Shown here one piece after another: positions 48,040 to 52,848 of a stretch of DNA of 64,000 nucleotides. The stretch covers positions 108,982,133 through 109,046,132 of the forward strand of contig NC_084463.1 of the NCBI RefSeq assembly GCF_027409185.1, given 5' to 3'. Made by a program: the position numbers and the translations under genes. Within the stretch, counting starts at the first letter, position 1. Each line of letters begins with the position of its first letter. The DNA is from Cynocephalus volans (lineage: Eukaryota > Chordata > Mammalia > Dermoptera > Cynocephalidae). The notes below the pieces were generated by a model. That model saw only the letters and a list, made by a program, of their open reading frames with translations, was not told the DNA's origin and did not search any database.

Positions 48040-48051
48040 GTATTATCTTTT
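48040..48051. repeat. Target-site duplication, L1 3' side
   Basis: GTATTATCTTTT on the plus strand, identical to 52,837-52,848. On the minus strand it reads AAAAGATAATAC directly after the eroded A-rich L1 tail. Confidence 0.9.
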
Positions 48052-51000
48052 TATTGATTTATTATCATTAATTGAAACAGTGATTGTATACATTTATGGG
48101 GTACAGAGTTATATTTCAATACATATACAACATGTAGTGATCACACAAGGGTAGTTAGCAAACTCATCATTACAAAAATTTATCATTTCTTTGTGATGAG
48201 AATATTTAAGCTCCTGTATTCTAGCCATTTGAGAACATACAATAAATTATTGTTAATTATTGATGCCTAACACTACTGTACACCACTAGAACTTACTTTT
48301 CCTATCTAGCTGTAATTTTGTGTCCATTAACCAATTTCCCACTATCTTCCCTCCTTTCTCTTCTTAGTCTCTAGTAACCACAGTTCTACTCTCGACTCCT
48401 AAAAGTTCAACTTTTTTTTTTTAGCTCCCACATATAAATGAGAAAATGCAGTATTTATCTTTATGCACCTGACTTATTTAACATAATGTCTTCTAGGTTC
48501 ATCCATGTTGCCACAAATGACAGGAATTCATTCCTTTTCGTGGCTGAGTAGCATTATATTGTGTGTATATATCACATTTTCTTTATCCATTCATCTGGTG
48601 GGGGACACCTAGATTGAGTCCGTATCTTGGCTATTGTGAATAGTGCTGCAATAAACATGGGGCCTCAGATATCTCTTTGGTATGCTAATTTCCTTTCCTT
48701 TGGATAAATACCCAGCAGTGGGATTGTTGGATCATATGGTAGTTCTATTTTTAGTTATTTGAGGAACCTCCATCTAGTTTTCCATAATGGCTGTACTAAT
48801 TTACATTCCCACCAACTGTGTATAAGAGTTCTCATTTCTCCACATCTTTGCCAGCATCTCTTATTTTTTGTCTTTTTGATAATAGTGATTCTAACTGGGG
48901 TGAGATGGTATTTCACTGTGGTTCTGACTTACATTACCCTGACAATTAGCGATGCTGAGCATTTTTTCATACACCTGTTGGACATTTGCGTGTCTTCTTT
49001 GGAGAAATGTCTATGCAAGTTGCTTGCCCATTTTATAATCAGATTTTTTTCTGTTGTTCAAATTCCTTTTATATTCTGGATATTAATCCCTTGTTGGACG
49101 CATACAATGCAAATATGTTCTCCCATTATGCTAGTCGCCTCTTAACTCTGTTGATCATTTCTTTTGCTGTGCAGAAGTTTTTCAGTTTGAAATCCCATTT
49201 GTCTATTATTGCTTTTGCTGCCCATGCTTTAGAAGTCTTCTCCATAAAAGTTTTGCCCATCACATCAGGGTGGGCAAAGACCAATACCTTGGAGTGTTTC
49301 CCCTATGTTTTCTTCTAGTATTTTTATAGTTTCACATCAATTAAGTTTTAATCCATTTTAAGTTGATTTTGGTAAGTGGTGAGAGATAGGGGACTACTTT
49401 CATTCTTCTGCAAATGGATATCCAGTTTTCTCAGCACCATTTATTGAAGAGGCTGTCCTTTCTCCACTGCATGACCTCAGCACCTTTGTCAAAGATCAGC
49501 TCACTGTAAATAAGTGGATTTATTTCTGGGCTCTCTATTCTGTTCCACTGGTCCATGTGTCTGTTTTTATGTCAGTTCTATACCGTTTTGGTTACTATAG
49601 CTTTGTAGTATATTTTGAAGTCAGGTAATGTAATGCCACTAGCTTTGATTTTTTTTTTTCAGGATTTCGTTGGTTATTCAGGGTCTTTTGTGGTTTCATA
49701 TAAATTTTAGGATTGTTTTTTCTATTTCTGTGAAAAGTGTCATTGGCATTTTGATAGAGATTGCATTGAATCTGTAGATCATTTTGAGTACTATGGGCCT
49801 CTTGACAATATTAATTCTTCCAATTCATGAACATAAAATGTCTTTCCCTTTTTTATGTCCTCTTTAATTTCTTTCATCAGTGATCTACAGTTTTCATTGT
49901 AGAGCTTTTTCAGCTCCTTGATTAAATTTATTCCTAGATATTTTATTTTTTGGTAGCTATTATAAGTTAATTGCTTTCAAGATTTCTTTTTCTGCTAGTT
50001 CATTGTTGGTGTACAGAAATGCTACTGATTTTTGTCTATTGATTTTGTATCTTACAACTTTACTGAATTTGTTTATCAGTTATAAGAGTATTTTTGTGGA
50101 ATCTTTAGGTTTTTCTATATATAAGATCATATAATCTGCAAATGGGGACAAATTTGACTTCATCTTTTCCAATTTGGATGTCCTTTATTTTTCTCTTGCC
50201 TAATTGGGCTGGCTAGAACTATCAGTACTATGTCTTGTTCCTGTTTTTAAAGGAAAAGCTTTCCATTTTTCCCTTTTCAGTATTATGTTAGCTTTGGGTT
50301 TGTCATATACTGCCTTTATTATGTTGAGATACCTTCTTTCTACAACTAATTTGTTGAGAGTTTTTATCATGAAGGGATGTTGAATTTTATCAAATGTTTT
50401 CTCTGCATCTATTGAGATGATCTTATGGTTTTTGTCCTTGATTTTGTTGATGTGGTATATAGCTTTTATTGATTTGCTTATGTTGGACCATCCTTACATC
50501 CCTGGGATAAACCCCACTTCATCATAGTGTATAATGTTTTCAATATGCTATGGAATTCTGTTTGCTAGTATTTTGTTGAGAATTTTTGCTTCTATGTTCA
50601 TCAGGGATATTGGCCTATAGTTTTCTTTTTGTTGTTGTGTATTTGTCTGATTTTGGTATTAGGGTGAAACTTGCCTCATAGAATGAGTCTTTGAGAACAC
50701 CCTCTGCTTCAATGTTTTGCAATAGTTTGAGAAGAACTGGTCTTAATTCTTCTTTTAAAAGTGATAGAATTCAGCAGTGAAGCCATCTGATATGGGGCTT
50801 TTCTTTGTTGGGAGAAGTGCTGATTACTGATTCAGTCTTGCTGCTTGTTACTGGTCTGTTCAGGTTTTCCATTTCTTCTCAGTTCAATCTTGGTAGGTTG
50901 TACGTGTTCATAAATTTATCCATTTCCTCCAGATTTTCCAATTTGTTGGTGTACAGTTGCTCATAATAATCTCTAATGATTCTTTGGATTTCTGTGGTAT

Positions 51001-52727
51001 CGGATGTAATGTCTCCTTTTACATTTCTGATTTTATTTATTTGGGTCTTTGCTCATTTTTCTTAGTCTAGCTAATGGTTTGTCAATTTTGTTTACCGTCT
51101 CAAAAAACCAACCCTTTGTTTCATCAAACTTTTGTATCCTTTTTTTTTTTTTTTTGGTTTCTCTTTTATTTCTGCTCTGATCTTTATTATTTCTTTTGGC
51201 CTACTAATTTTGTGATTGGACTGTTCTTGCTTTTCTAGTTCCTTGAGGTATAACATTAGGTTATTTGAAATCTTCTGATATAAGCACTTATTACAATAAA
51301 CTTCCCTCTTCTTACTGTTTTTGTAGTATCTAATAGTTTTTGGTATGTTGTGCTTCTATTTTCATTTGTTTCAAGGAATTTTTTAATTTCCTATTTAATT
51401 TCTTCTTTGACCCACTGGTTGCCCAGAAGCATGTTGTTTAATGTCCATGTATTTATACAGTTTCCAAAGTTTCCCTTGTTATGGTTTCAAGTTTTATTCA
51501 TTGTGGTCTGAAAAGAAAGTTAATGTGATTTCAGTTTTTAAAAATTTGTTGAGACTTCATTTGTGGCCTAACATGTGGTCTTATTCTGGAGAATAATCCA
51601 TATGCTGATGAGAAGAATGTATATTCTGCAGTTGTTGGATGAAATGTTCTGTAAATGTCTGTCAGGTACATTTGGCCTATGGTGCAGTTTACATCCAATG
51701 TTTCTGTGTTGATTTTTTTGTATAGACGATCTGTCAACTGGTGAGAGAAGGGTGTTGAAGTCCCCAACTATTATTGTATTAGGGGGGTGTCTACCTCTCA
51801 CTTCAGGTCCAATAATATTTGCTTTATATATCTGGGTGCTCCAATGTTGATTGCATATATATTTATAACCATTATATCCTCTTGCTGAATTAATGCCTCT
51901 ATCATTATATAATGTCCTTTATCTCTTTTCATAGTTTTAGTTTAAAGCCTATTTTATCTTATAAAAGTATAGCTACTCTGCTCATTTTTGGTTTCCATTT
52001 GCGTGGAATATCTTCTCCCATCCCTTCACTATAAGCCTATGTGTATCTTTACAGGTGAATTGAGTTTCTTGTACACAGCATATAGTTGGGTCTTCGGTTT
52101 TAAGTCATTAGGCATTCTATATCTTTTACATGGGGAATTTAATCCATTTACATTCAAGGTTGTTACTGAAAGATACTGCCTTATTCTTGATATTTTATTA
52201 ATTTTTTTATGGTTGTTTAACACATCTTTCTCTTTTATTGTTTGGCTTTCCTGTTTTAGTGATAAGATATAATTTTTTTCTCTTTCTGGTTTGCATATCT
52301 GTTCTACTGATATGTTTTATTCTTTTGCATGTTATCATGATGGTAGTGATTGTTCTTCTGCTTCCAGATGTAGGACTCTCTTAAGGATTTCTTCTAGGGC
52401 TGGTCTTGTGGTGGTGAATTCTTGCAGTTTTTGTTTATCTGGGAAGTACACTTTCTCCTTCACTTCTGAGGGATAGCTTTAATGGGTTTAGTATTCTTGG
52501 CTAGCAGGGTTTTTTCTTTCAGCATTTTGAATATATACCACTGTCTTCTTGCCTGTAAGGTTTTTCTTAGAAATCTGCTGGTAGTCTGATGGAGATTCCC
52601 TTGTTGGTGACATTGTGCTTTTTTCTTGGTGTTTTTAGAATTCTTTGTCTTTGACTTTGGATAAATTGACTAAAATGTATCTCAGTGGGGACTTTTTTGG
52701 GTTAAATCTGGAGATCTTTGAGCCTCT
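48052..52727 (-). mobile_element. L1, 5'-truncated in ORF1, fused to U6
   Basis: Minus-strand L1 of about 4.7 kb. From its 5' side it starts inside the C-terminal part of ORF1 ('GAGGCTCAAAGATCTCC' at 52,725 downward, colinear with the sense L1 at 55,230), passes the ORF1-ORF2 spacer, ORF2 start (about 52,240: LSVTTLNVNGLNSP), endonuclease (51,801-51,531: VGDFNTLLSPVDRSS, then TDIYRTFHPTTAEYTFFSS), reverse transcriptase (about 49.7-51.1 kb) and ends in the 3' UTR with an A-rich tail at 48,052. Many stops and frameshifts mean it is dead. Its 5' end is joined directly to a U6 copy and both share one target-site duplication, so they inserted together. Confidence 0.92.
51531..51801 (-). pseudogene. 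L1 ORF2 endonuclease-domain remnant
   Basis: Two overlapping minus-strand frames together cover the L1 apurinic-like endonuclease. One keeps NTIIVGDFNTLLSPVDRSS, with the conserved GDFN block, the other keeps TDIYRTFHPTTAEYTFFSSAYGLFSRI. The switch between frames at about 51,740 shows a frameshift. In a working L1 this nuclease nicks genomic TTTT/A sites to start reverse transcription. It is non-functional here. Confidence 0.85.
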
Positions 52728-52834
52728 AAAAATATGGAAGACTTGACGATTTTGAATGTCATCCTTGGACAGGACCCATGGTAATCTTCTCTGTGTCATT
52801 CCAATTTTAGTATATGTGCTGTCAAAGTGAGCAC
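52728..52834 (-). pseudogene. RNU6: U6 snRNA copy (full length) at the 5' end of the L1
   Basis: The minus strand from 52,834 to 52,728 is a 107-base U6 spliceosomal RNA copy. It opens GTGCTCACTTTGACAGCAC, keeps 'ATATACTAAAATTGGAA' and 'ACAGAGAAGATTA' (the ACAGAGA box that pairs with the 5' splice site), 'CAAGGATGACA', and ends CTTCCATATTTTT, which is the U6 3' terminus. About 20 substitutions put it well away from a functional gene, and there is no U6-type promoter (PSE/TATA) upstream: the preceding bases are TSD and AT-rich DNA. Its 3' U-run abuts L1 ORF1 sequence with no gap. In normal cells U6 is the catalytic core of the spliceosome; this is a retrocopy carried in by L1. Confidence 0.93.
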
Positions 52835-52836
52835 TC

Positions 52837-52848
52837 GTATTATCTTTT
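52837..52848. repeat. Target-site duplication, U6 side
   Basis: GTATTATCTTTT, identical to 48,040-48,051. On the minus strand the junction reads AATT/AAAAGATAATAC, the TT/AAAA context cut by L1 endonuclease. Two extra bases (52,835-52,836) lie between it and the first U6 base. Confidence 0.9.

What the first reader, a model, noticed from the sequence alone, without database searches (positions are those of the whole stretch)
48040..52848. U6 snRNA / L1 chimeric retrotransposition, caught with both junctions
A full-length U6 copy (52,728-52,834) joins at its 3' U-run, without a gap, to an L1 that starts inside ORF1. Both are in the same orientation. One 12-bp duplication (GTATTATCTTTT) flanks the whole 4.8-kb unit, and its context is TT/AAAA, the L1 endonuclease site. 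So the two parts entered in a single event, not as a nested insertion. U6/L1 chimeras are known in human and other mammals (attributed to template switching or RNA ligation). A long L1 part of about 4.7 kb with the U6 3' end exactly at its U-run favours joining of the intact U6 3' end to a 5'-shortened L1 RNA.
Basis: partly seen in the sequence, partly recalled or inferred. Interest (0 to 1): 0.78.

Follow-up and report, generated by a model that had tools for sequence, protein, structure and literature searches.

The report
Ordinary U6/LINE-1 chimeric insertion
A copy of the splicing RNA U6 and a shortened LINE-1 jumped together into a short repeat in one event; it is a clean example of a well-known kind of mammalian insertion, and the same genome holds several more.

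Summary
On the minus strand a full-length U6 copy (52834-52728; Rfam RF00026, 87.7 bits) joins at its T5 end, without a gap, a 4,676-bp L1 (52727-48052). A second L1 in the window aligns collinearly, starting exactly at base 52727. One 12-bp duplication flanks the whole unit; the U6 or L1 boundaries taken alone share only 6 bp.

The flanks joined with one duplication copy match a 73-bp repeat at 40 listed places of the same genome, and 30 of 30 fetched copies are uninterrupted at the site. The chimera interrupted one such repeat at TT/AAAA.

It is not rare here. Of 25 other U6 copies examined, at least 11 have L1 after the U6, 5 of these with inserts over 4 kb. Two sit in the same site of other copies of the repeat.

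U6/L1 chimeras are well known. RNA ligation and template switching cannot be told apart at this locus. It is a new member of a known kind, of low interest.

The parts
48011..48039 (-). 3' half of the interrupted 73-bp repeat (target), beyond the duplication
   Evidence: joined flanks match the repeat elsewhere in the same genome
48040..48051 (.). target-site duplication, copy at the L1 3' end (GTATTATCTTTT)
   Evidence: exact 12-bp match to 52837-52848; only these two copies in the window
48052..52727 (-). 5'-shortened L1, 4,676 bp, broken reading frames, short A-rich 3' end
   Evidence: neighbour L1 aligns 52727-49564 with 55239-58425, 75.5%; ORF2p C-terminal match at 48928-48758
52338..52727 (-). 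ORF1 C-terminal part, where the L1 begins
   Evidence: Pfam PF17490 and ORF1p matches for 52478-52338; weak ORF1p match for 52701-52570
52728..52834 (-). full-length U6 snRNA copy ending in T5, joined without a gap to the L1
   Evidence: Rfam RF00026, model 1-105/105, 87.7 bits; 16 of 107 differences from recalled human U6
52835..52836 (-). two bases (GA) between the U6 5' end and the duplication: untemplated, or part of a longer duplication with one base lost
   Evidence: sequence; after the 12 bp, 30 empty repeat copies read A in 25, then G in 18 or A in 11, then A in 28
52837..52848 (.). target-site duplication, copy at the U6 5' end
52849..52880 (-). 5' half of the interrupted 73-bp repeat; with the duplication it reads GAATT/AAAAG, the L1 endonuclease type of site

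Best explanation
One target-primed reverse transcription event by L1 proteins inserted a U6-L1 composite cDNA into a copy of a short dispersed repeat. ORF2p nicked the repeat at TT/AAAA and copied L1 RNA from its 3' end to a point in ORF1. It then copied a whole U6 RNA from its oligo-U 3' end to its 5' end. The target duplication of 12 (perhaps 15) bp closed around the whole unit. Shown here: the anatomy, the shared duplication, the empty site in paralogous repeat copies, and similar chimeras elsewhere in the genome. Inferred from the published L1 mechanism: the enzymology. Not decided: whether U6 and a 5'-shortened L1 RNA were ligated before copying (the RtcB route in print) or the enzyme jumped from L1 RNA to U6.
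For: U6 is complete at both ends and in L1 orientation. The alignment with the neighbour L1 starts exactly at the base after the U6. No L1-like sequence lies beyond the U6: best match E 0.13. The duplication surrounds the unit only: 12 bp, against 6 bp for U6 alone and 6 bp for L1 alone. Joined flanks equal an uninterrupted 73-bp repeat: 30 of 30 fetched copies span the site at 92-97%, 3 with a one-base gap outside the duplication. Of 25 other U6 copies examined, 24 keep the U6 3' T-run (T5-T7) and 1 (L047) does not; at least 11 of 25 have L1 after the U6.
Against: The A tail is short and degenerate, and four of its A's belong to the duplication. The two extra bases at the U6 5' side are not explained with certainty. 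No related species could be compared, so presence and absence were tested only against paralogous repeat copies. The endonuclease match and the ORF1 match next to the junction are weak. 14 of the 25 other U6 copies have tails that my two L1 references do not identify as L1 next to the U6.
Confidence: 0.96

Rival explanations
1. Within the single-event reading: RNA ligation first. U6 RNA with its cyclic-phosphate 3' end (recalled) is joined by RtcB to a 5'-shortened L1 RNA, and the chimeric RNA is then copied.
For: The U6 ends in T5 and joins the L1 with no gap; the neighbour L1 has an A, not a T, before the base that corresponds to the junction, so no overlap is seen. U6/L1 RNA ligation is reported.
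Against: Template switching beginning at the U6 3' end predicts the same sequence. Among the 24 other copies with an intact T-run, 10 have T6 or T7 at the junction, which neither model excludes.
Confidence: 0.55
2. Within the single-event reading: template switching. The reverse transcriptase leaves the L1 RNA in ORF1 and continues on the U6 3' end.
For: Proposed for U6/L1 chimeras in print; fits orientation, duplication and site here.
Against: Nothing at this locus separates it from ligation; no shared bases are seen at the junction.
Confidence: 0.41
3. Two events: a U6 pseudogene inserted into, or next to, an older L1.
For: U6 copies are also inserted without L1; L047, where A-rich sequence follows a shortened U6 T-run and a duplication lies close by, looks like such a copy.
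Against: No duplication around the U6 (6 bp at best), no A tail between U6 and L1, no L1 beyond the U6, and a duplication that encloses both.
Confidence: 0.02
4. Segmental copy or assembly artefact that brought U6 and L1 together.
For: None found at this locus; some U6 copies of this genome do lie in a spaced cluster on C18.
Against: The flanks are the two halves of one repeat copy with a duplicated target, as expected for retrotransposition.
Confidence: 0.02

Closest known systems
U6/LINE-1 chimeric insertions of mammals (Doucet et al. 2015, PMC4476161; Law and Burns 2026, PMC13174262; earlier papers only as cited there)
   Same: Full-length U6 in sense orientation at the 5' side of a shortened L1, joined at the U-run; duplication around the whole unit; TT/AAAA site; single insertion event.
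   Different: Long L1 part (4.7 kb), though 5 of 25 other U6 copies examined here also have inserts over 4 kb; the target lies inside a short repeat, whose other copies served as empty sites.
Polyadenylated U6 pseudogene (the Poly(A) class of the 2015 paper)
   Same: U6 mobilised by L1 proteins with a target duplication.
   Different: Here no A tail follows the U6; L1 follows directly.
Twin-priming U/L1 chimeras (inverted, 3'-truncated snRNA; one U6 case in the 2015 paper)
   Same: snRNA joined to L1 in one insertion.
   Different: Here U6 is complete and in the same orientation as the L1.

Membership tests
U6/LINE-1 chimeric insertion | Full-length U6, sense orientation relative to L1, at its 5' side | tested here: met
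   Rfam model 1-105/105 on the minus strand; L1 on the same strand
U6/LINE-1 chimeric insertion | U6 3' U-run joined directly to 5'-truncated L1 | tested here: met
   T5 then L1; alignment with the neighbour L1 starts at base 52727; start lies in ORF1
U6/LINE-1 chimeric insertion | One target-site duplication around the whole unit | tested here: met
   12 bp; by chance 7 of 19,879 and 3 of 200,000
U6/LINE-1 chimeric insertion | L1 endonuclease site TT/AAAA | tested here: met
   GAATT/AAAAG at the 5' side and as the commonest letters in 30 empty repeat copies
U6/LINE-1 chimeric insertion | Poly(A) tail at the L1 3' end | tested here: inconclusive
   short degenerate A-rich end, AATAAATCAATAAAAA, partly shared with the duplication
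U6/LINE-1 chimeric insertion | Empty site with one copy of the duplication | tested here: met
   paralogous repeat copies only, 30 of 30 fetched copies uninterrupted at the site
U6/LINE-1 chimeric insertion | U6 and L1 present or absent together across species | not testable with these tools
   the window's genome has no relatives in the collection

The most novel reading that the evidence does not exclude
The TT/AAAA site of this 73-bp repeat family is a recurrent landing site for U6-bearing L1 insertions. Three U6 copies, followed by inserts of different length, sit at the same site in three separate repeat copies, which gives natural replicates of one target. This locus is a shown L1 chimera; the tails of the other two look like short L1 3' ends to my eye but did not match my L1 references.
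Probability: 0.3. Interest if true: 0.35.

Novelty: new member of a known kind. Interest (0 to 1): 0.2.

Why it matters
It adds a well-resolved case, with an internal empty-site control, in a mammal genome that holds several U6/L1 chimeras, long ones included. A census of junctions there could help to separate RNA ligation from template switching, and the repeated use of one target sequence offers replicates. The single locus changes nothing in the accepted picture.

Tried and rejected
Nested or two-step insertion was rejected. A same-breakpoint relative was considered because L004 matched query 17-144, 16 bases past the junction. Read by eye, its sequence is an L1 running through, without U6, so I take the overlap as chance. 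Scans of viral contigs for the junction and for the joined flank found 0 places each; a viral collection is not expected to hold such loci, so this says little.

Host: a tRNA-Ile-like stretch beside a T/TG run and no 7SL-type hit in Rfam at gathering score made me think of a non-primate mammal. A colugo is my guess from recalled SINE families; two paper searches gave no support.

Not answered: the count of available target sites, needed to judge whether three U6 copies in one repeat site exceed chance, and the search with the junction alone.

Full report
Observation. The minus strand of 52848-48040 reads: duplication, two bases, U6, L1, A-rich end, duplication. The U6 match is complete (Rfam RF00026, 87.7 bits, model 1-105 of 105) and is the only Rfam hit at gathering score in the 64-kb window. 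Against human U6, typed from recall, it has 16 differences in 107 positions and no indels: 9 at the 14 CpG positions and 7 at the other 93. It is a decayed copy. One search compared 26 U6 copies position by position, this one included; I dropped L039 and L054, whose counts are spoilt by indels. Among the remaining 24, only L003 has more differences at non-CpG positions (8 against 7).

The L1 part. A second L1 on the plus strand of the window aligns with the chimera's L1 in one collinear piece, 52727-49564 with 55239-58425, 75.5% over 3,259 columns. The alignment begins exactly at base 52727, the base after the U6. The start lies in ORF1: 52478-52338 hits the L1 dsRBD-like domain PF17490 (3.3e-07) and L1 ORF1p chains of the PDB (best 3.9e-07; that these are human is recalled). 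The stretch next to the junction gives only a weak ORF1p match (E 1.4). Of 10 pieces given to Pfam, 3 hit L1-type families, two of them under the curated cut-off (RVT_1 29.1 against 29.6 bits; Exo_endo_phos 14.9 against 24.5); the other 7 gave nothing or weak unrelated families. The stretch 48928-48758 matches L1 ORF2p residues 1106-1162 (5.7e-25), and the endonuclease piece is weak (E 0.057). The frames are broken into short pieces.

One event, not two. The outer boundaries share exactly 12 bp, GTATTATCTTTT. The boundaries of the U6 alone and of the L1 alone share 6 bp each. Of 19,879 random pairs of 60-bp windows, 7 reached 12 bp; with placement as tight as here, 3 of 200,000 draws did. The stretch 52849-53600, beyond the U6, shows no match to the neighbour L1 (53601-58440) better than E 0.13. 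No A tail separates U6 and L1. Two bases (GA) lie between U6 and the duplication. In 30 empty repeat copies the letters after the 12 bp are A in 25, then G in 18 or A in 11, then A in 28. So a 15-bp duplication with one base lost in the 5' copy is as good an explanation as two untemplated bases.

Empty site. The window's own genome (2.81 Gb, 130 contigs) could be searched when the machine answered: four searches in all. A 73-nt sequence made by joining the outer flanks with one duplication copy matched 40 places at 92-97%; two further rows are weak reverse matches (77%) at two of these places (1,177 candidates in the first look, 40 scored, so a lower bound chosen for likeness). All 30 fetched copies span the site; 3 have a one-base gap, each outside the duplication. 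The chimera thus interrupted one copy of a short dispersed repeat at GAATT/AAAAG. This meets the empty-site check through paralogues. The orthologue check in another species could not be made, as the genome has no relatives in the collection.

How common is it here? One search listed 40 matches (of 2,485 candidates, 40 were scored): this locus, 2 L1-only places (L004, L048) and 37 other U6 places. I examined 25 of the 37; all come from a list ranked by likeness to this locus, not from a random sample. In 24 of 25 the U6 T-run is intact with T5 to T7 (T6 or T7 in 10); in L047 it is not and A-rich sequence follows. L1 homology to my two references follows the U6 in at least 11 of 25: from within 35 bp of the U6 in L039, L040, L043, L046, L050, L052, L053, L055 and L058, and from further down the insert in L044 (base 160) and L045 (base 537). 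In L043, L044, L045, L046 and L055 the insert after the U6 is over 4 kb, with at least 3.8 kb of aligned L1. Duplications of 10, 22, 16 and 18 bp close the unit in L044, L045, L046 and L055; no clean one was found for L043. The remaining 14 copies have tails that these references do not identify as L1 next to the U6. A 21-base U6 word occurs 201 times in the genome and its reversed control never.

Same landing site. An exact pattern, the repeat's site followed after 1-10 bases by the U6 start, occurs at three places in the genome and its reversed control at none: this locus, L002 (C3) and L003 (C12) (exact matches only, so a lower bound). In L002 and L003 the second half of the repeat follows about 359 and 97 bases after the U6, with a duplication AAAAGATAGTACA (exact) and a 12-base one with 2 mismatches. 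These are separate events in separate repeat copies. Their tails did not match my L1 references; that they are short L1 3' ends is a reading by eye. Whether three is more than chance is open, because the count of available sites did not complete, and the search that first showed them favours longer matches.

Mechanism. Target-primed reverse transcription of a U6-L1 composite explains everything seen. The T5 end and gapless joint fit ligation of U6 to a shortened L1 RNA and equally fit a template switch at the U6 3' end. The 2015 paper (PMC4476161, sections 6 and 9 read, other passages seen) explains such chimeras by template switching and states that internal initiation was never seen for U6/L1. 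The 2026 paper (PMC13174262, sections 6, 10, 11 and 17 read, other passages seen) says that the full-length, sense-oriented U6 is consistent with ligation or switching. A 2026 review (PMC13247085, passages seen) mentions U6/L1 RNA ligation as a pro-transposon reaction. The 2019 ligation paper (Moldovan et al.) was not held; I saw only its title in that reference list.

Known or new. The 2026 catalogue counts 180 U6/L1 loci with human as reference, 98.3% in sense orientation. In the 2015 table, U6 copies associated with retrotransposons appear in every mammal listed except Tasmanian devil and megabat. This locus is another member of that kind, with a good internal control.

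Noticed in passing
55239-58425 (+): A second, older L1 in opposite orientation. Its homology to the chimera's L1 stops at 58425, inside ORF2; by eye it begins near 53700.
   Followed up: partly
3-234, 13611-13987, 24032-24403, 32955-33362, 60743-61176: A repeat family of up to about 430 bp, 69-83% alike between copies; it looks like an LTR of the MaLR type by recall.
   Followed up: no
61730-61855: tRNA-Ile-like stretch beside a T/TG run, perhaps a tRNA-derived SINE; no second copy found in the window.
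   Followed up: partly
window's genome G000, C18:337227-894357: Ten U6 matches of equal score at 86% lie in a spaced cluster, several about 29 kb apart: perhaps a duplicated U6 block. Not read.
   Followed up: no
L002 and L003: Two further U6 copies at the same TT/AAAA site of other copies of the 73-bp repeat.
   Followed up: partly
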